From Paralvinella palmiformis (Eukaryota > Annelida > Polychaeta > Terebellida > Alvinellidae): 64,000 nucleotides of DNA. The notes under the pieces are model-generated. The model saw nothing but the letters and a program-made list of their open reading frames with translations, had not been told where the DNA came from and did not search any database. Shown one piece after another: positions 5,501-62,606 of this stretch; the first letter of the stretch is position 1, and every line of letters begins with the position of its first letter. Location of the stretch: positions 194,501 through 258,500 of the forward strand of contig JAODUP010000018.1 of the NCBI GenBank assembly GCA_025642065.1, read 5' to 3'. The translations under genes were made by a program, and so were the position numbers.

Positions 5501-6149
5501 CACCTAATTGGCTTATGTCAGTTATCTGGATAGGAGACTACGATACTTTTCAACAAATTGATAAAACAGTGAAATTTAGCTTAGATTTAGCTTAGCTTAG
5601 TTTTTAATATCTAACAGTGTGCAGAAACCATAGATATACTATGAAGGATGTGAGTAAATAAATTAACGGGAGAGAGAGAGAGAGGGGGGGGTCATCTATC
5701 CTTACTGGGTGTAAATATTGTTATGGCAATAATTTTAGATGACCATTATTTCAGTTTACCTAACATTCATATAAGTAATTATAACCACACAGTAGCCTAT
5801 AGTACACTTAAAACTAAAACAGTGATCAGGAAGGTAAACTTAGTACAATGCCACGCCTCATTACAAAGTGTGGAGGGGGGATCTCGCTACTATTGTCATC
5901 GTTGGTGCATGAATGGCGGCAAGAAGCTATTATATTATTATACATGACACTTCATCTATATTTAGCAGCATGAATCATTTCTGGGGCTCTGCCCAGTCGG
6001 ATTTTTAGGCGGAGAATTACCAGTGTGGGAAGAGCTAGAACCGGTGACGCTATGAGGAGGGGGTGTGCCGGGGGGGGGGTTGAGATAGATGCCTGACGGA
6101 GGCATGGTTACATTCATCTGGGATGTTGTACATTCATGAAGATCACATT
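1926..6149. other. AT-rich non-coding DNA
   Basis: Apart from the microsatellite at 2468 and short C or G homopolymers, nothing is recognised. Confidence 0.6.
2468..2520. repeat. (GA)n(GT)n microsatellite
   Basis: AG run followed by GT with a short GCGCGC interruption. Confidence 0.95.
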
Positions 6150-6162
6150 TAATGGAGTGTTG

Positions 6163-6305
6163 ATTGGCTGAAAGCTAGTTGGCCCGGTTACACCGCAGCG
6201 GCCGGTTGTTGAGCTCTGATTGGCCAACAGCCTGGTTCAATGAGACTCGCCGGTGTAGGAGGACCGGCAGTTATAAAACCAGCCTGATAACCTGGCATAG
6301 ACCGT
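6163..6305 (+). promoter_or_regulatory. CCAAT + TATA promoter-like cluster
   Basis: Inverted CCAAT boxes (ATTGG) lie at 6163-6167 and 6219-6223, and TATAAAA lies at 6272-6278. A start near 6302 would place TATA at about -30 and the nearer CCAAT at about -80, which is canonical spacing. CpG-dense DNA follows on both sides. No start site can be proven from sequence. Confidence 0.35.
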
Positions 6306-6765
6306 GGTCTGTGTTGGGATGGTGAAAGTGAGGGCCAATAATTTTTGCCTTTTGCCCGCACGCATAGATACACACGTGCGCATCCCGATGACTGGGCGAT
6401 CAACTGGCCAGCGAGACGCACGTGTAAAAATCGCGTTGTCGCAGGGTTTACGATCCCGATATCCGAACTTGCCGCTCCTGTTACCAAGGAGAACTTCGGG
6501 ACAAGCGATCTCTCGGCACAAGGACACAGTGTAAACCAGCGACGGCGGCGGCGGATACCACCAAAACATTCCATTCTTGGATGCATTGTTGTAATGTGTT
6601 GTTTATCTGTGTTGTGGATACAATGCATGAGGCCGATGCGCATGCCGAGCTCTGATATCACTCGCATGCTGTCGGCGAGCCACCGGTTGCTTAGCATCAT
6701 AGCCGATGCTCATCACAGTGGAGTGATCTAGTCACTAACTGACTTAATGTTACCCTGCATTTCAG

Positions 6766-6816
6766 GAAGACGCGGATCGATTTTGAAGTCTTTGGACAAC
6801 ACCAGGAAAGACACAG
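6766..6816 (+). other. Candidate 51-nt non-coding or 5' UTR exon
   Basis: The acceptor is good: a branch-like CACTAAC about 30 nt upstream, then TACCCTGCATTTCAG. The donor is ACAG|GTGATA at 6817. Two frames are open, but 51 nt is too short to call coding. It lies about 460 nt downstream of a CCAAT/TATA-like promoter and may be a second exon of a transcript starting there. Confidence 0.25.
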
Positions 6817-8802
6817 GTGATAACAGTATCATACTTATGTTAATTTGTTATGTAGGTGATCTATGTTATGTTTACTTGCTTTATGTGTTTGTCAGCTGGA
6901 CATTTACTTTTCCTGTCAAACACGTGGTGCTGATGACTTTGCCTACAAACGGACCCCGTCTGCTCACTGTAGATTGTACATTTAACATTGCCGATGTTAC
7001 TTATCACTTATGCCTTTCCGGTGTTCTGATTGATTATAAAAATGTATTGCCAGTTTGGAGGGCCTGTGAAAACATTGGAAACAGCCTCCTCAATAGCAGC
7101 ATCCTACCCACAATGTGCTACTACTGTTAGCAGGCACTATTGCCGGTATCGGTGTAATTTTAGCGCCCGGCTAAGCACACTACACTAGCGAGCGGTGCTG
7201 CCGCGGCTTGACTTGAATGCACTCGGTTGGCCGGAGGTTTTTTCCGAGATGATTCACAGGCGAACCACGTGGCATGTCAGACTCCCACACCCATATCGGT
7301 GTCTGTGGCCCAGGTTTCCTAAACCAGTTCACAAGCGGGCCATCATCATCCATGCTGTTGGTGCTGGGCCAGACCGGCAGAGCGCCGCCACTCGTCTGGC
7401 GGGCATGTGGCGTGCAAGGATGGCGACCGAACTCGGCCGGATGGTGCACCTGGCGGAACACCAACAACGATGTCAACGGCCTGTACTCAGGCTCGGGCAC
7501 TGTGTTACACACCTGTGTGCCAATTGGCTGACCAGTAAACTAACCGGTGAAGTGGACATCCAATCAATATTGTGAAAGTAAGTTGCGCGGCTCGTCACTG
7601 GGCCATCATGCTTCACGGCTATGCTGCTCTGACGTATACGGCGTGTATAAGCGTGTTTAGAAGACGGGAGGATCTTTGTTATCGCAGCCGTGTTGCTAGC
7701 TGATAACGCCATTGTATTCATTGTGCAGGCTAATGAGCTTACCGGCCATAAATGCTCGACTGATAACAAAAGCCTGTTTGCCTAAGGTGTCCACTTAGGC
7801 ATGCAACGCATACCACGGCCTACAGTATCACACCTGACGCCGGTCAACATCTGACAGCCAGCCACGCGTAAGTTACTTCAGTGGATCAAGTACCTTTGTA
7901 GGACTTAAGTGTCTCATTTACGACGCTCAGTCCGTTGAAAACACTAAAACCATTTGGCCGGAGACGTGCCTTGGCCATTGACATTCTAGTGATGGCTGGT
8001 CACAAACAGTTTAAATAAGCCTTCAGAATTGGGTGCTGCGATGTTTGATTTCCGCTAACATTACTCTTATGTCCTGAAGAACACCTGACTCAGGAGATCA
8101 GGAGATTCATTATAAATTAAAACTCTTTATGAAAACGACACACATGGTGGCAATTGTTAACGCAATAACGGTGATGCCACTTGGTGACTAGAAGGATCAG
8201 CTACGATTTAACCATTACGAACATCCTTCAGTTGCGGTGCGCAACGGCTATGACATTCCACTGACCTGTGTGTATGTGTGTAATACACGGACAAGAGAAG
8301 GTGACTGTATCTTACAGACAGAATCTCTTCCACAACTGACCCATGGTACAAGCTGGTAAGGGCTCTTTCAGTCTTTGTATAAGTTAGATGACATTTGTTC
8401 TAATGTGGACTAATCCCTTTCAGCTTAGCATAATGTTTGAGTGGTGCTTCTTTTCAGCTCTGTTGATCTAGGTAGATGGCCATTTGGTAATCCTAGATGT
8501 CCAGCTTTAATCCCGGGAGTTAATTTCTTTCCTTTCTAGGTTAGTTGGGTCAGCCAGTGCATGTTTGTCCAGACTAAACAAAATGGTTTGTCTGGATCAT
8601 GACCCTGGCTAAATGAATATACTTGGACTAGGACCTGAGTAATGACGCTTCTGTTTGGTCAGCTAATTTTAGCCTTATTTTTTTGCTTTGATGGGGGGGG
8701 CGGGTTGGATTTGAAGCAATTTCGATGTTTGTTTTTCTCAGTCCCCGCACAGGAACAGTAAATGGGGGGGGGGTCTTTGTATCTTACGTTTTCTTCTTTC
8801 AG

Positions 8803-19800: not shown

Positions 19801-20424
19801 TCTGGTTCTGGTTTTCGGTTATTAATTAATGGCCACTCCATGTCTGATGGCACCTGCAGGGCTAATCCTCCCCTGGCGATTCCTCACTAATTACTTCACA
19901 GAATTAGTTTTCATTCTGTTTACAGGATTAGTTTTCAAGGATGTGGATATTAATTGACTCCGCCACTGATGATACTTGAGCACTCTATTGATGTCTGTAT
20001 GAGCGTAACCATATGTGTGTGTGTGTGTATGTGTGTACGCGTTTTCTTTTCTTTTGTCGCTTATTGTAATTTCATAGCAGCGTTATTAACCGTTCTCAAC
20101 CCGTTTCATTACAGATATATTCTTTCCAGATTTGAAAAAGGTAACTTGTATAGCAGTTGTTATGCGGCCGTAGTTAGAGGCTTCTTAGTTAGTTAGTAGC
20201 TTGGTATAACAAAATACCAGTATTCCATTCTGTTAACCGTCCCTATTGTTTTCCTGTGAAAATTGTTCGGTTTCGTGTCTCCACTTGACATTTATCATAT
20301 ATGGCCGTGCTGTGCTATTCTCTACATTTAACTCTTCTGGAAACCCACTAAATGGACATTTGTAATAGTCTGGTTAATGCATGCCATCACCTACAATCCT
20401 CCCACCAGTATGTATGCATGCATA

Positions 20425-20425
<1 letters not shown>

Positions 20426-20460
<35 letters not shown>
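20426..20460. repeat. (AT)n microsatellite
   Basis: Perfect AT run. Confidence 0.96.
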
Positions 20461-20463
<3 letters not shown>

Positions 20464-20699
20464 CAAAAGCTGCTGGTCTAATAAGTAGAGTCAAGTGTAT
20501 TGACCGGGTTAGGTACTTACTCAAAGATTAATAATATATGGTCTATCTACTTAATCCACGTGGTAGTGGTGGTGGAGGTGATGGTTGTTCACAATATGCA
20601 ATGAAGGATGATTTATGTCTGTACATTGTAGTGTTAAAAAGACAGTATGGAATTTAGAGGGTTTTATTACTATTTGGTGTTCGGTACAGGTAGCTCTTG

Positions 20700-21170
20700 T
20701 TGTTGATTAAATAGCAGTGGACGACGTCGGGCGGTATGGTATGATCGTCCTAAGTTATAAGTACGGCCTTACGCTGTGTTGGTGTTACAAAGGAAGGTAG
20801 ATTATGGTTCGGTGGACTATTTTTACCTGAGTGACATCGCTGGTGGCGAGGTGCGTCCCCGCTCTGGTCCAATGATCACAAATCACAAGCAGGTAGCCAG
20901 AATGTGCTGTGGGAAGTAGCGGCGGAAAGATGGCGCCCTCTATTGCACGCCGCTGCTTGCCGTCATCCAGCGACGCACGCACGCCATCCATCCACCCACC
21001 ACCGCATACCTCGGCGGCAGCGTGGGATGTTAAGAGCTGTCCCAGTCCATTGGGTGTGACCGTCACACTTCGCTGTGCAGCGAGACAGCCAGCCGTTCGT
21101 GTTATCGCGCCTGCTCTCTTTCAAGCTCATAAAATGGAGAGAGGGTCACGAAGAATACTAGGCTGCTGCT
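20700..21170 (+). promoter_or_regulatory. CpG-dense candidate promoter upstream of mir-8
   Basis: The stretch is unusually rich in CpG for this window and free of long microsatellites. At 20911-20937 it has GGGAAGTAGCGGCGGAAAGA followed directly by TGGCGCC: ETS-like GGAA cores and a YY1-like AAGATGGCG (20927-20935). In animals such motifs commonly sit near CpG-type transcription starts. It lies about 1.5-2 kb upstream of the mir-8 hairpin on the same strand, so a start for the primary mir-8 transcript is plausible. The 87-residue open frame across it (20909-21172) has no recognisable domain and is probably a by-product of base composition. No TATA box is evident. Confidence 0.35.
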
Positions 21171-21704
21171 AGGATGTTGGCTGGCTGGCAAATGCCCGTC
21201 TCTCTAGTAAGGAATATGTTCGGATGTGACTGTACGGGGCGTGTTTCACCAATATCTTCAGGCAGGCAGGCCAGACTCTTTCAAGATCACCAGGAATGTG
21301 TAATTAGCCTCTAAGGCAAGTCATCCTTTCGGTGTTGTGTCTGATTTGATGTGCCTTTTTTTGGTGAACTTCTCTACCAATGACCAGTTAGTAAGCTTAG
21401 ATGTCGGTATAACTATGATTGGGTACCTGCCTTGTTGTATAGGACGTCTCCCGTGAGACCAATTGGTGGCAGTCACCGGTTGTTTTTTGTGTGTGTCTGT
21501 TGCATAGAGCAATGAAAGTGATATCGGCGTCTAGCTTGTGAGGGGTGTAGTTTTAACATACGTTAGATAAAAAGCAGGCCTATTGCATGCAGGCTGCATG
21601 TGACTCTTGTCCAGCCATGTGTGTCCACGTATGCATATAGTTTTGTAGCTTTGAATTTCAGATACCGTTGTACTGTTCGCAGAGGTAAGCCATCACGCCA
21701 AAGG

Positions 21705-21741
<37 letters not shown>
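21705..21741. repeat. (AT)n(GT)n microsatellite
   Basis: About 18 nt of AT then 20 nt of GT. Confidence 0.95.
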
Positions 21742-22317
21742 ATAAAATTGATTTAATACATCTGTTTTAATGTTGTAATTTTGTGAATCCATGTATAAAT
21801 GATAATGTGCTAAAACTGGGAAAAAATTCACCAGCACCTCAGTGACATCGGCACGAAAAGGAACAGCTGCTGTGAATTTCTTCTCTTATTGGTTGTATAC
21901 ATCAACAGATGTTGTTACTGACAGGATGTGTTCAGAATGTATCTGTACTAAACACTGCTTGTACTGGACTCGATGCCTCGGACCACAAGCGCACAAGCAT
22001 CCACACACACACATTGCTTGATGTCCTGCACATCACCAAAGATTGGATGACATGGTGTGCCCGTACACCATGCTCTCTTTGCATCTCTATCTGTGTATAT
22101 GGATCGTAGTTGGCTTGAAGTATCAGGAGATCACTGTCTGAGGGATGCATGACGATAGGTGGCCACAAGCTACACTGTCCTCTCACGGCACGTGAATCAT
22201 CTCTGTGTATAGATGTTGGTAACAATTGTCATCAAGATGGAAAACTCACAACAACTACAACAGAAGGTACATGTGCAATCCAGTAACAGATTGACATGTG
22301 TCAGCAATGCCTGTTGT

Positions 22318-22400
22318 CACTACTGCTACCATTACTACCACTGCTACTACTGCTGCTGCTACTACTACCACCACCACCATCGCTACTGTATTACCACCAC
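22318..22400. repeat. Trinucleotide-rich CTA/CTG/CCA tract
   Basis: Imperfect runs of CTACTG, CTGCTG and CCACCA; about 260 nt upstream of mir-8. Confidence 0.85.
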
Positions 22401-22664
22401 TACGTTGCTCTATCACCTGTTTAGAGCCCAGAGAAGGATAACTCCTGGTCCGATGTTACTGTAACTGCTTGTGTGCGTGTGTGCGCATGTGCATCCAATG
22501 CCACACACTGATGGGTTGCTGCCCTTGCTGGGGTGGTTTGGCCACCCGGGGGGCAGCCGGAGCACAAAGTACCGTTACAATAGCTGAACGGGAAACAAAA
22601 ACCAGCCCGTATCCGGCCACTCTAGCTAGCTAGGGGAAAAAGACTTTTTGGGGGGTTCTGGCGT

Positions 22665-22686
22665 CATCTTACCGGACAGCATTAGA
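22665..22686 (+). ncRNA. mir-8: mature miR-8-5p (star arm)
   Basis: This is the 5' arm of the hairpin. It is complementary to the 3p arm with one bulge and a few wobble or mismatched positions. Ends are placed by comparison with known miR-8-5p and may shift by a base. Confidence 0.88.
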
Positions 22687-22705
22687 CTTCTGTGTTGGCA
22701 ACTTC

Positions 22706-22728
22706 TAATACTGTCAGGTAAAGATGTC
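22706..22728 (+). ncRNA. mir-8: mature miR-8-3p (guide arm)
   Basis: The seed is AAUACUG (22707-22713), shared by miR-8, miR-200b, miR-200c and miR-429. The continuation UCAGGUAAAGAUGUC is the protostome form; vertebrate members diverge after the seed. This is the guide strand in other animals. Confidence 0.96.
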
Positions 22729-22740
22729 TCCAGGGTCCCG

Positions 22741-22748
22741 TGACGTCA
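22741..22748. promoter_or_regulatory. CRE-like palindrome beside mir-8
   Basis: TGACGTCA is the perfect CREB/ATF palindrome, 13 nt past the miR-8-3p end. It overlaps the CNNC processing motif, so it may have no transcriptional role. It could also arise by chance. Confidence 0.3.
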
Positions 22749-23848
22749 TGGAGATAGCCCCGTCACATGACAGCCCACCACTCACTCCGTTAGATCCATC
22801 TCTGAGCTGGGACGACCGTACGTACACCGGTTAACATCGACACGGCCAGCCTGTGCCTCTTTCTGAACTGATCAACGTTTCTCTACAAGTCTTGTGTCTT
22901 CTTCAGTGTCACAACATTTAGTCTGTTTCTGTAGCACCTATCTCTGACAAACACACTATCTCTCTGTCCGTCAGTAATCGGCTCATGCTGAATAGCGGGG
23001 TGATTGCTCCGAGTATTCAACGTGGGGTGGTTTTCGTTAATAGGCTGACATGTATAAAGGGCCCCCCGGTAAGCCCGACTCGTGCATAGTGCTATGTTTC
23101 TGGTATCTAGGTGTATATGTAAAACCAGTGAAACTCTTACCGGTAATGTAAAGGAACGCCGATTCTCTACCTGGATTGCGTTCATCATGTCATTCTATTC
23201 GTAAGCGGTGCCGGTAATTTGTACAGAATCGTTTCTCTAGTTTATGTAAACTTTCCGGATGTTCTGCCATTAATATGTCAAACTACAAAAACTTTACTCG
23301 AAATATAAGCCGATTCCCTTGCTCATGTAATCGAACCAGAATGGCAGAACTCTGGGAATTATTTTTTAGTTTTTGTTACATGTGTATACTTCTGTGTGTA
23401 TGGAATAAGCTAGTCAGTGCACTCATAAGTCACCTAAACGTCATGATTAATCAGACTGACGATTAGAAAATGTGAATGTGAAACTGGTAAATGTTTTCTG
23501 AATGTTTGTGACACGGAGATATGGGTGCTTGCTTACACACCACGATATTTTTGTGCTGCTGCTGCTGCTTCTAAAGTAGATATATGCCATTTACGGCCAT
23601 CTGTTAAACTAAAGTAACAATTCACTCGATTGCTAGTGGGTTTATTAATATTTATGACCAGCCAGTGGGAGGCTATGATTATACGTGTAAAAATTGTGTA
23701 GCAACAGTACATTAGTTATTTTAAACGCAGAAATCACACCACTACCAACCAACCCCCCATCCCGCCCCCAAACCGTCTCCCTCTCACTGCCGACCCGAAA
23801 TTAGCACATATTCTAAGAAAGTCTCTTCCGACCTGCCTGTACGTACAG

Positions 23849-23921
23849 ACAAAATTTTACCTTTCAAGTCCGACTCGATTTCGTTACACGCGCCCCAAAC
23901 TAGTCTAGACCCAGAAACCAG
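23849..23921 (+). CDS. Candidate exon with consensus CAG|GTGAGT donor
   Basis: An acceptor-like tract (CTTCCGACCTGCCTGTACGT then ACAG, AG at 23847-23848) and a perfect donor (CCAG|GTGAGT at 23922) enclose 73 nt. One frame is open, reading KILPFKSDSISLHAPQTSLD then PET, and leaves phase 2. That frame is also open upstream to about 23729 through a Pro-rich, C-rich run. About 1.1 kb downstream of mir-8, it could instead be a non-coding exon of the mir-8 host transcript. Confidence 0.25.
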
Positions 23922-25613
23922 GTGAGTGAAATTCTAATGCAGTTACTCACCGCTAGACTTCATGGGATGTTTACATTCTTTCGGTTTGAGGTATATAGTC
24001 CCGGTTTTTCATCCTGTGGCGTTTTTTTATAGTTGATTGCCACTTTACATAAGGTAGGCTAGCCTCTATCTTGCTGCGTCAGCTTAGATTTGGGTTGATG
24101 TGGCACAGATAACCAGACCACAGAATTTGGGCTTCTAGTTATTTTCTTCCTTCATCGAAAGAGTTCCTTTTAGCGGTAGAAATAGCCAGTTATATCCAAA
24201 GAAAGCCCCCCCCCCCCATCCCCCCCCCCATCCATTCGGTCACCGATGGGGTGTTGCTTCTGTTTTGGGCAAACCCCAGATCTTGTGCTGGCTAATTGAA
24301 TTATTCAACTTATGATGAGATCTGGCTGAACTTCCACTCAGACAGGGGATCCACACATGGCTAATTACTAAAACCGAAAATCCATATCTGGCAGACTTTC
24401 CAGTTGGATCAGGAATCCAGCTGGATAAATTTAGGATCCCCCCCCCGACCAGCAGACCACATCTGGTTAGGTTCCAAACCAGCAGCTACCAGCTTAGCAT
24501 CGAATCCAGATATGTGTATCCACATTGATCTGGAATATAGATCTTGTATTTTTATCTTTGTGTTGGCTATTAATATCAATGTACTGGTTATTCTCTGCGG
24601 TGCATAGATCTCATTATTCAAACTGGGGCCATTATTGATTTTTGTTATTATTCACCCTAATTATTTACAGTCAAGGTAGTTCAGCATCGTTTAATCACTG
24701 ACGTCCAATCAGCTCAGTCTTCCGTGATATGTTGAAGCGAAGTGGCAAGGATGTCGAAAATGGGCCGGTCAGTCCTCGATTACCGTAGACACATTTGTCA
24801 GGTTGGTAACACCTACACTTTGTGACCCGGCCACTGGAACAGCTGAGCTTTAGGGGGATCAGAGATCAATAAATAAATACTGGCTGACTGTTAGATATCG
24901 ATCTCATTTGTCTGTGTGTAGCAATTTAATATTAGTCGATTGGTTCGGCTATTTGTTGGCCTGATGGTAATACCTTGGTAGATAGAGAGATGTGCTGAAT
25001 GTTCTCTAACTGAAAGTCAATGATGTGATGATGTTCATGGGGTTGACTTGCCGCTGAACTGGATTATGAGGTACAGGGTGTGTATGTACGCGCGCGCGTA
25101 TGTGTGTGGCCTTGGTTTAAATCATGTTTACATTCTTGGACTAAAACCCCCAAAAAACATGACCATTAGATTATGGTGGCAGTTGTCTCAAATAGCCAAA
25201 TCGGATCATTGTTAGTCAGCGATTATCAACTTCTGCCCATTTTAGGATGGTCTTGGTTCAGTTTTGCTGAAGATAATTTCTAGGCCTACCAAATTGCAGC
25301 CACTGATAGAAGCCGCTTATCTTTTACCGAGATGGAAAAAATATAGCCCCATTGTTTTTACACCGAATGGAAGATTTCGTGTTGTTCATTTATAAATATG
25401 TGGATTGGATGGGTGTGTGTGCCTGTTTGGTGGGTGTCGTAGGTATTCGGTGTTTATGACTAACTAGGGTGCACCTGGTTGACTGTTGAACAATGATAAA
25501 AACAAATATCAGGTGTTTTGTGGCATATTGATTCACGATGATATCTAGGCGTTTTATACAATAGATCGCTGATGTGTCTTTTGTGTGTATTTCATTCTAT
25601 CTCATTACCCCAG

Positions 25614-35598: not shown

Positions 35599-35630
<32 letters not shown>

Positions 35631-35650
35631 GTGTGTGTGTATGTGTGTGT
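35599..35650. repeat. (CT)n(GT)n microsatellite
   Basis: Abuts the minus-strand family I SINE at 35653. Confidence 0.95.
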
Positions 35651-35652
35651 AT

Positions 35653-35757
35653 TTTACGACCACTTTTGTGCACATGATGGTTGGCTAAATGGGCCGAGCG
35701 ACCTCCAAAGGTAATGAAGCGAAGTCAAAGATGAAACAACTTTCAGATATGCGGAGG
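35653..35757 (-). mobile_element. SINE family I, headless copy on minus strand
   Basis: Read on the minus strand it gives ATCTGAAAGTTGTTTCATCT, TTTGGAGGTCGCTCGGCCCA and GTGCACAAAAGTGGTCGTAA. The tRNA-like head is missing. (GT)n lies on both sides. Confidence 0.8.
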
Positions 35758-38818: not shown

Positions 38819-38983
38819 TGCAGTGCTTACTTGGGTTATGTAAACTCCATCTATAAAACTGTACCTCTAATAATTATTAATAATTGGCTATATGACGTGC
38901 ATAGGTTCATACAGATGGCGAATATTGCTCTATCAGTTTTTGTACGAGCTGCATTTACCTCACCGAGGAACAAAGGGGGCGGG

Positions 38984-39166
38984 GGGGTCCTTGGTCTAAT
39001 GATAGCTTGTTGGATCACAGCCCACTACCACCCGTGTTCGAATCTCGGCGTGGGCATATCTGAAGGGTGTTTCATCTTTAACATCGATTCATTACCGTTG
39101 GAGGTCGTTCAGCCCATTTAGCCTACCATGTACACAAAAGTGGCCGTAAAACATCGATCATCTTCA
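38984..39166 (+). mobile_element. SINE family I, near full-length copy
   Basis: The A box TGGTCTAATGA (38992-39002) has one mismatch and the B box GTTCGAATC (39036-39044) is intact. The body ends GTACACAAAAGTGGCCGTAA followed by AACATCGATCATC. It shares the head-body structure of the 49802 copy with scattered substitutions. The open frame that ends at 39121 lies partly in it and is not a gene. Confidence 0.85.
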
Positions 39167-42062: not shown

Positions 42063-42231
42063 TCTCGATGGACTAACTTATAGCGTGCTTGGAAATAGAC
42101 TTCTAGTAGCCGGGTCCACACCCCGGCCTGGCTTAATATCTGAAGGTTATGTCATCTTCCGCTTTGCGTCATTATCCGTGGTGGTCGCTAGGCTCATTTA
42201 GCGTGGCCGTTTGCACGAAAGTGGCCACACA
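42063..42231 (+). mobile_element. SINE family I, decayed copy
   Basis: The head and B box are eroded (GGTCCACACC), but the body is recognisable: ATATCTGAAGGTTATGTCAT, then GTGGTCGCTAGGCTCATTTA and a GTTTGCACGAAAGTGGCC-like end. This is the oldest-looking copy in the window. Confidence 0.6.
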
Positions 42232-48892: not shown

Positions 48893-49801
48893 AGTGATAC
48901 TTTAGATGATGAACCATTTATATATTTCCATTATGATTTCTAATTCTCGTGCCGGTGCCTTCTCGCCCAATGTTAAAACACACAAGTGTGCAGGCTTCTC
49001 GTTGCTTTATTGCATACGCAATAATTAAAATAACTCCCATTTCCGTAGATTGCAAATTCCGTGATCCCGTATAGCCGGGTCCAGGTCTGGCAAGTTCGGT
49101 ATTCCATTGTGTATCCGCCGTGCGCCGAGCAAAGCACTTTGTGATTAATGGTGTTTCAAAAACATAATCATTTATTTGTTGGAGTCTGCCGGCTCGGTAT
49201 GTTGGCGGTGTGTTGTTTTGACTGGATACACAGGATTGTTTGTTGTTCCTGATTGATATTGGATACAGATCTCGTTGCCATGGTGACAGGGATACTGGCT
49301 TAGAACGCCGCCCTCCATCTGCCACGGGAGGGCGTGGGGATATTTTTCCATTTCATCCGTCCCGCAATACAGCCATTCGTTCGGGACAGACGCCGTCCCG
49401 GCTGTGTTAATATGTACAAAGCTGGGATGGGTTGGCGATTATGTAGAAACAATAAGTGAATTGGGTCTGGCGTATGTATATGGCCCGTACTCCCGGGAAT
49501 CGCTGGCCCCGGGGTTGCGAAGTCCCACCCAGTTCGTGGATCCGAACACCAGCGCTCACCACAACAGCTTCGGATGGTTGTTCCACTTCCGGTTTCAGAA
49601 CGGCAGTCATTAACCCGTCGTCGAGTGGTAGATCTTAATAAGTGACCTTCAGGTGGAGCGAGCCCTTTGAATGAGTGTCAACCGTTGTCGATGACCATCA
49701 ATCAACTTGTCAGAATTGGCTGGGAAAATAACGACCACTAGGTGGTATGAATAACGGTCTGGTGCATGAAAACACATCTCTTTTTTCATCCAGTATTTGA
49801 G

Positions 49802-49988
49802 GGCGCCTCCGTGGTCTAGCGGTAGCTTGCTGGACTACAGATCACTACCACCCGTGTTCGAATCCCGGCGTGGGCATATCTGAAGGTTGTTTCGTCTTTC
49901 ACTTCGTCTCATTACCTTTGGAAGTCGCTCGGCCCATTTAGCCTACATTGTGCACAAAAGTGGCCGTAAAACATCAATCATCATCATC
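49802..49988 (+). mobile_element. SINE family I, full-length copy
   Basis: The tRNA-like head has a perfect A box TGGTCTAGCGG (49812-49822) and B box GTTCGAATC (49856-49864). The first and last seven bases of the head (GCCTCCG / CGTGGGC) pair at six of seven positions. The tRNA-unrelated body runs ATCTGAAGGTTGTTTCGTCT through TTTGGAAGTCGCTCGGCCCA to GTGCACAAAAGTGGCCGTAA, followed by an (ATC)n-like tail. RNA polymerase III transcription and LINE-driven mobility are known for such elements. This copy serves as the reference for the others here. Confidence 0.88.
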
Positions 49989-52775: not shown

Positions 52776-53132
52776 TTAGAGATATGGCACAGTGATGGCC
52801 TCGTAATACTGTACTATATGCTGACAACGGAATGAACATCATTTTAGAACTGACTGGTGTAGTAGCTCGGTGAAGAGTACGGTTCACAGTGCCACAGGTA
52901 ACGCCATGGACAAAACTGAACAGGACAAAACTGGCTACTGAGGATGATTTTATACGTTTTAGTTTTTCATTATCAGTTAGCTGCGTCTGCCAAACCGATT
53001 TGAAAACATTTAACACAACTATAGAAATAAAACTGTCCTTTATGGAATAGACATATAGAGCATTATGGTGTTGCATGGTACTAAGTCAACAGAACGTGCA
53101 CACACACACACACACACTCTCTTTATCTCTCT

Positions 53133-53187
53133 GGGCCCATTTAGCCTACCGTGTGCACAAAAGTGGCCGTAAAACACCAATCATCAC
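53133..53187 (+). mobile_element. SINE family I, 3' fragment
   Basis: Only the last 55 nt remain (GGGCCCATTTAGCCTACCGT to GTGGCCGTAAAACACCAATC), between two (CA)n tracts. The head is missing, typical of 5' truncation during insertion. Confidence 0.75.
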
Positions 53188-56479: not shown

Positions 56480-57230
56480 GTCTTGTTGACATTGCTCCGT
56501 CACAGTCTACTCCGAACTTGACATCCTACGACTAGGATTACCATCCGGGCCTTTGACTTTGGCGGCTATTTTAGGCTATAAATATTTTATATGGGATAAT
56601 GGCTAATTATGTTTGGGGCCTCGTACTCGAGGGAGTTCGGCACATATTTACCGATGAAAATCTACCCGACGCAGTTTTGTCGTCCGCCATCGGCCAACAA
56701 TCGTGGATTGATCTGCCAATGATCAACTATTCGTAACATTTCCGGAGCCGACCATATTGTATTTACCGGGCGAGTAAGATGGCGTCCCGGGTCAGGTTTT
56801 ACTATTTGGTGAAACCTTTCGCGCGGCGGCGCCCAATGCGCTAAGTCATGCCCCAAAACCGGACCCTTGCTCTTATTCGGGAATGGGGCTCCTTCGTGGT
56901 CTAACGGTATAACGTGTCGATTACAGATCTCTATCACCCGTGTTCGAATCTCGGGGTGGGCAATGATGTTAAATATCGGAATGGCTGTGTGGTTTTCGGA
57001 CTGTTTTATTATACCGCTGACCCCAAAATTACCGCGGTGTTATCATTTATTGGTGTACCATCGTACCACCAGCCATTTTGACAGTATAACATACACAATC
57101 ATACGGGAATTTAATCAGTAAAGTGTTCCAAGGTGCCGCCATATTTTATTCATTGGCTTCAGTTTGAAGAGCTCCAGTTCGATGGCAGGTTTCTTCATCC
57201 GCCGTATCTACGGCCTTTTGCCAGCAAAAT
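56480..57230 (+). promoter_or_regulatory. CpG-dense block with YY1 motifs before the 58584 exon
   Basis: It contains AAGATGGCG (56776-56784) and, in the opposite orientation, GCCGCCATATT (57135-57145), both YY1-like, with ATTGG (inverted CCAAT) just after the second. GC-rich GCGCGGCGGCGCC lies between. It is 1.4 kb upstream of the coding exon at 58584, so it may be an alternative promoter or an intronic enhancer. A family I SINE head (56886) sits inside it. Confidence 0.35.
56886..56962 (+). mobile_element. SINE family I, tRNA-like head only
   Basis: A box TGGTCTAACGG (56897-56907) is perfect, B box GTTCGAATC is intact, and the sequence ends TCGGGGTGGGCA with no body. The acceptor-stem halves do not pair, so a functional tRNA gene is unlikely. 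It lies inside the CpG-dense block before exon 58584. Confidence 0.7.
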
Positions 57231-59035: not shown

Positions 59036-59280
59036 TGTAAGCATACATTAAACTGTAAGTCCATAAAACTTAACATATTTATTGTATCTGGCCTGTACAT
59101 TAGTTGGTACAACTCCGACAAGGAAGCTTGTTGTACTTGATGAATATATAAATATATCTAGCAGGAAGTCTGATAACAGGCCAAATAGTTCTGGCAACAA
59201 ACAAGCATGAATCCTAACACATGCATTATTATTATTATTATTATTACCATCATCATCTGACATCATCATCATCATTACTC

Positions 59281-59440
59281 AACCACCTGAGTTCAAATCT
59301 CGGTGCGGGCATCTCTAAACGGTGTTTCATCTTTTACTTTGTCTCATTACGTTTGGAGGTGGTTTGACTCATTTAGCCTACGTTGTGGACAAAAGTGGTC
59401 TTGAAAACTTTATAATGATGATGATGATGATGATGATGAT
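59281..59440 (+). mobile_element. SINE family I, 5'-truncated copy with (ATG)n tail
   Basis: It starts just before the B box (GTTCAAATC, 59291-59299) and contains the body (GGTGTTTCATCTTTTACTTT, ATTTAGCCTACGTTGTGGAC). It ends in a run of ATG triplets. The A box half is lost. Confidence 0.8.
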
Positions 59441-62420: not shown

Positions 62421-62560
62421 TATCATCTGATATCTTTAGAAACTGTCCCATGTCTGTATTACACCCATCTGGAACCAGCCCAGGTGCACCGATCTTCAGA
62501 AATGTGGAATGTTGTTTTACAGCCACTTTCGCGTACGTGGTATGCTGCAACGGGACAGAT

Positions 62561-62606
62561 GACCTACAAAGGTAGTGAAGCGAAGTGAAAGATGAAACAC
62601 CCCTCA
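62561..62606 (-). mobile_element. SINE family I body fragment
   Basis: The minus-strand sequence GGTGTTTCATCTTTCACTTC followed by GCTTCACTACCTTTGTAGGT matches the central body only. It sits about 20 nt past the end of the 62627-62785 copy in the same orientation. Confidence 0.65.

What the first reader, a model, noticed from the sequence alone, without database searches (positions are those of the whole stretch)
22653..22738. Intact, strongly conserved mir-8 locus in otherwise gene-poor DNA
Both arms, the hairpin, the apical UGUG and a CNNC motif at exactly +16 are visible. The 3p arm has the protostome sequence. This is the one element here with near-certain identity and deep conservation, and an open-reading-frame scan would miss it.
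Basis: partly seen in the sequence, partly recalled or inferred. Interest (0 to 1): 0.9.

Follow-up and report, generated by a model that had tools for sequence, protein, structure and literature searches.

The report
Ordinary animal mir-8 microRNA gene
This stretch carries a hairpin of the long-known animal microRNA family mir-8 (miR-200 in vertebrates), with a 3' arm identical to that printed for insects and molluscs; it is predicted to be processed and to silence target messenger RNAs as elsewhere, so it is real but ordinary.

Summary
Window 22660-22731 (+) matches Rfam RF00241 (mir-8) over the whole model: 67.1 bits, gathering score 47, E 7.7e-13. The 86-nt stretch folds to -36.1 kcal/mol, z -5.3. 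The putative 3p arm, 22706-22728, is letter for letter the miR-8-3p printed for insects and molluscs. With arm ends taken from homology, the predicted fold gives 2-nt 3' overhangs at both ends. CNNC lies at +16 and UGUG in the loop, but each is common by chance, and no UG sits at -14. Best reading: an intact orthologue of a deeply conserved microRNA gene in a protostome, possibly a mollusc; the taxon is not shown. None of the 30 longest open frames scanned reached a Pfam cut-off, so "gene-poor" is compatible but unproven. One small curiosity: the minus strand also passes the mir-8 gathering score (48.5 bits), largely expected from a near-palindromic hairpin; antisense processing is not excluded. 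No expression evidence was available, and the search of the window's own genome did not complete. Already known; low interest.

The parts
22660..22731 (+). mir-8 precursor hairpin (RF00241 model 1-72 of 72)
   Evidence: 67.1 bits, gathering 47, E 7.7e-13; fold of 22653-22738 -36.1 kcal/mol, z -5.3
22665..22686 (+). putative miR-8-5p (star) arm
   Evidence: 21 of 22 identical to the form I took as the insect one (name recalled; string), 17 of 22 to the snail 5p printed in PMC7328434 and PMC7838618 (alignment). Ends inferred by homology
22687..22705 (+). terminal loop region with TGTG
   Evidence: TGTG within 19 nt in about 11% of places in this window
22706..22728 (+). putative mature miR-8-3p, seed AATACTG
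   Evidence: identical over 23 nt to printed miR-8-3p; its 21-nt core is unique in the window within 3 mismatches. Ends inferred by homology
22744..22747 (+). CNNC motif (CGTC) at +16 of the 23-nt 3p end, inside a TGACGTCA palindrome (22741-22748)
   Evidence: weak: chance about 0.12 for three positions
22660..22731 (-). antisense hairpin that also passes the mir-8 gathering score; function not shown
   Evidence: 48.5 bits, gathering 47; z -5.76; no CNNC at +16 to +18 of its 3p-like arm

Best explanation
The stretch is an intact mir-8 family hairpin on the + strand, likely transcribed as part of a longer primary RNA and predicted to be cut by Drosha and Dicer into a duplex from which the 3' arm (UAAUACUGUCAGGUAAAGAUGUC) would be loaded into Argonaute and repress mRNAs that match its seed AAUACUG. 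Shown here: the hairpin, the family match and the exact 3p identity. Read from the predicted fold: 22665 pairs with 22726 and 22684 with 22706, which with the homologous arm ends gives 2-nt 3' overhangs at both ends. Inferred from relatives: arm dominance (bgl-miR-8-3p 245,404 and 47,380 against 528 and 181 for 5p in two count columns of PMC7328434, whose headings I did not see and take as reads in two libraries), processing and targeting. Not tested: expression, host transcript and targets.
For: Full-length RF00241 match well above the curated cut-off. z -5.3 fold. 23-nt identity to printed miR-8-3p of silkworm, Biomphalaria, Bradybaena and an oyster miR-8 primer; 31 papers hold at least one of the five arm strings searched, 25 on insects, 5 on molluscs and 1 on a crayfish by title. 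The 5p arm differs from the form taken as the insect one at 1 of 22 letters. No second copy of the 3p core in the window.
Against: No expression data. UG is at -16 and -6, not at the recalled -14. CNNC and TGTG are each about one in eight or nine by chance. The whole 22-nt 5p string of this window is printed in no paper of the library in either spelling, so the 5p arm matches no printed relative exactly there. The first 15 letters of the 5p arm also occur in papers on mammals and zebrafish (listing), so the 5p arm alone does not say protostome. The minus strand folds nearly as well and passes the same threshold, so the strand rests on the 18.6-bit difference and the 3p identity.
Confidence: 0.96

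Rival explanations
1. The locus is likely transcribed and processed on both strands, giving miR-8 and an antisense miR-8 with a shifted seed (AAUGCUG).
For: The minus strand passes the RF00241 gathering score, 48.5 against 47 bits, and folds with z -5.76. Antisense miRNA loci (miR-263, miR-306, miR-iab-4AS) are reported in silkworm (PMC2824724, passages).
Against: A long hairpin is nearly its own reverse complement, so an antisense match is expected; [quoted passage not shown] No CNNC at +16 to +18 on that strand. The passages seen of PMC2824724 name two antisense loci and miR-iab-4AS, not mir-8.
Confidence: 0.05
2. The locus is a silent duplicate of mir-8, with the active gene elsewhere in the genome.
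For: Copy number in the genome could not be checked.
Against: No decay is visible: full-length model match, intact fold and a perfect 3p arm.
Confidence: 0.03
3. The hairpin is a chance inverted repeat that resembles mir-8.
For: Stable hairpins are not rare here: 33 of 12,784 tiled folds outside the locus reach -34 kcal/mol or lower.
Against: E 7.7e-13 to the family model; exact 23-nt identity to printed miR-8-3p; 0 matches in 100 shuffles.
Confidence: 0.001

Closest known systems
mir-8 / mir-141 / mir-200 family (Rfam RF00241), protostome miR-8
   Same: Full model match and identical 23-nt 3p arm; 5p arm 21 of 22 to the form taken as the insect one
   Different: 5p differs by 1 letter from that form and by 5 from the two snails compared; loop and flanks were not compared with relatives
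bgl-miR-8 of the snail Biomphalaria glabrata (PMC7328434, PMC12261956; passages seen)
   Same: Same 3p sequence; 3p has the far larger counts there
   Different: 5p arm 17 of 22 identical; that locus is listed as 'PCG - Intronic', whereas here no host gene was found

Membership tests
mir-8 microRNA family (RF00241) | Sequence-structure match above the curated gathering score | tested here: met
   67.1 against 47 bits, model 1-72 of 72
mir-8 microRNA family (RF00241) | 3p seed AAUACUG with the conserved 3p arm | tested here: met
   22706-22728 identical to printed miR-8-3p
canonical animal microRNA | Stable imperfect hairpin | tested here: met
   -36.1 kcal/mol, z -5.3, 0 of 200 shuffles as stable
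canonical animal microRNA | 2-nt 3' overhangs of the arm duplex | tested here: inconclusive
   The predicted fold with homologous arm ends gives 2 nt at both ends; the real ends need reads
canonical animal microRNA | Microprocessor motifs: CNNC, apical UGUG, basal UG (names in PMC6298569 passages; positions recalled) | tested here: inconclusive
   CNNC at +16 and UGUG present, UG not at -14; chance about 0.12 and 0.11 for the first two
canonical animal microRNA | Small-RNA reads with consistent 5' ends from both arms | not testable with these tools
   No reads available

The most novel reading that the evidence does not exclude
This mir-8 locus is a two-strand microRNA gene: the antisense hairpin is also processed and yields a miR-8 sister with seed AAUGCUG, giving one locus two target sets.
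Probability: 0.05. Interest if true: 0.35.

Novelty: already known. Interest (0 to 1): 0.08.

Why it matters
It is a clean annotation: an ORF-based scan would miss it, and the family and the exact 3p form point to a protostome animal as the source of the window. It adds no new biology beyond one more orthologue, with a 5p arm that differs from the two snails compared. If antisense processing were real it would add mir-8 to the known two-strand microRNA loci.

Tried and rejected
Chance hairpin: rejected by the family score and the exact 3p match.

Other microRNAs in a cluster: the relaxed Rfam scan gave 35 rows at E up to 1. Two are the mir-8 rows; one is a weak mir-200 match to the same hairpin; 22 are mir-297, mir-1277 or mir-3149 rows, which by their coordinates largely lie in microsatellites; 7 are SCARNA7; the last three are single rows of SNORD112, mir-9201 and PhrS. 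All 33 besides mir-8 lie below their gathering scores. No tRNA by ARAGORN, run with the bacterial code.

Relatives in collections: none in viral contigs for the exact 3p, none in genome contigs for an arm-loop-arm pattern, none in phages for 20000-25000. These are collections of viruses, bacteria and archaea, so the misses say nothing about the family in animals.

Protein genes: of 434 stop-to-stop frames of at least 50 residues that passed an entropy filter, I listed the 34 longest that passed a stricter one and scanned 30 of those with Pfam. None reached a cut-off. Three had weak rows: YxzE 18.9 bits against 40, CYYR1 17.3 against 31, Strep_his_triad 15.3 against 27; I dismissed them on these scores and did not follow them up. 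The other frames, and anything shorter or spliced, were not scanned.

CRE-like palindrome TGACGTCA around the CNNC: two in the window; I did not build on it.

Papers that gave nothing for the argument: PMC8728216, PMC6468455 and PMC6627748 (passages only); the listings.

Full report
Observation. The sequence at 22653-22738 is as described. Rfam's mir-8 model matches 22660-22731 on the + strand over its whole length with 67.1 bits (gathering 47, E 7.7e-13); the same stretch on the minus strand has 48.5 bits, E 1.3e-07. The + strand folds to -36.1 kcal/mol (z -5.31, 0 of 200 shuffles as stable); the minus strand to -34.0 (z -5.76). In 181 nt of context the hairpin is kept on both strands, with total energies of -61.3 and -62.8 kcal/mol. 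In the fold, 22665 pairs with 22726 and 22684 with 22706, so the homologous arm ends (22665-22686 and 22706-22728) would have 2-nt 3' overhangs at both ends. The stem goes on below the arms and some letters of those overhangs are paired in the whole hairpin, as expected before cutting.

Motifs. TGTG lies in the 19-nt loop; CNNC offsets after 22728, within 40 nt, are +16, +30 and +33; UG offsets in the 30 nt upstream are -16 and -6. The review PMC6298569 (passages only) names basal UG, apical UGUG and CNNC as Microprocessor features; the exact positions (-14, +16 to +18) are recalled. In this window CNNC in any of three neighbouring positions has a frequency of 0.12 and TGTG in 19 nt 0.11, so these motifs agree with the identification but hardly add to it. 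Stability alone is likewise weak: 34 of 12,784 tiled folds reach -34 kcal/mol, 33 of them outside the locus.

Relatives. A text search for five arm strings found 31 papers (search listing); by title 25 are on insects, 5 on molluscs and 1 on a crayfish. Passages seen: Biomphalaria glabrata bgl-miR-8-3p is identical, with counts of 245,404 and 47,380 against 528 and 181 for 5p (PMC7328434; column headings not seen); Bradybaena similaris has the identical 3p (PMC7838618); a blood clam candidate, Tgr-nmiR-28, is one letter longer at its 3' end (PMC3972184); the real-time primer for oyster cgi-miR-8 is the same string (PMC3916443); so is silkworm miR-8 (PMC2824724). The 5p arm of the window is 21 of 22 identical to the form I took as the insect one (the name is recalled; in the listing, which shows 30 of 41 papers, that string occurs in six papers, five on insects and one on pig cells) and 17 of 22 to the two snails. 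Its first 15 letters also occur in papers on dog, mouse, human and zebrafish RNA (listing). The full 22-nt 5p occurs in no paper of the library in either spelling. The taxon is therefore not fixed: a protostome by its 3p arm, possibly a mollusc or another spiralian; this is an inference.

Surroundings. There is no second copy of the 3p core within 3 mismatches, no tRNA, and no other RNA family at its gathering score. Microsatellites are abundant. The 30 open frames scanned gave no Pfam match at the curated cut-off, which fits intergenic or long-intron DNA; short exons were not excluded. In B. glabrata mir-8 is listed as 'PCG - Intronic' (PMC12261956 passage), so an intron is a live option here. 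The window's own genome could not be searched, so copy number is unknown.

Mechanism. Commitment: a canonical microRNA gene whose 3p arm represses mRNAs with matches to AAUACUG. The hairpin and identity are shown; transcription, processing, loading and targets are inferred from the family. In Drosophila miR-8 is a target of PRC2 silencing, linked with Notch, in intestinal stem cells (abstract of PMC10907375), and PMC2824724 cites it as a negative regulator of Wnt signalling (passage). None of these roles was tested for this animal.

Antisense. The minus-strand score above gathering is a small curiosity. It is expected from a nearly self-complementary hairpin; [quoted passage not shown] The minus-strand 3p-like arm starts at 22684 with seed AATGCTG and has CNNC at +8 to +10 and +27, not at +16 to +18. 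I saw no report of antisense mir-8 in the titles and abstract starts (12 of 25 papers shown; 10 of 87 shown) or in the passages, which is a narrow search.

Verdict.

Noticed in passing
38981-39166, 49801-49986, 59236-59421, 56885-56962, 53128-53186, 42136-42226; minus-strand copies near 35626-35752 and 62485-62606: Dispersed repeat family (BLAST pieces 74-92% alike). Three copies have a GTTCGAATC stretch like a tRNA B box (motif recalled; a fourth has GTTCAAATC), and four have a shared CATTTAGCCTAC...ACAAAAGTGG part; it looks like a tRNA-derived SINE.
   Followed up: partly
22660-22731, minus strand: The antisense strand of the mir-8 hairpin also exceeds the Rfam gathering score (48.5 against 47 bits).
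   Followed up: partly
6180-7575: GC-richer stretch (2-kb bin 6001-8000 at 50% GC) with overlapping open frames on both strands; six of them scanned, no Pfam match; stable folds there too.
   Followed up: partly
22471-22600: Strong fold (-41 kcal/mol for the 86 nt from 22471, + strand) just upstream of the mir-8 hairpin; might be part of the primary transcript or promoter.
   Followed up: no
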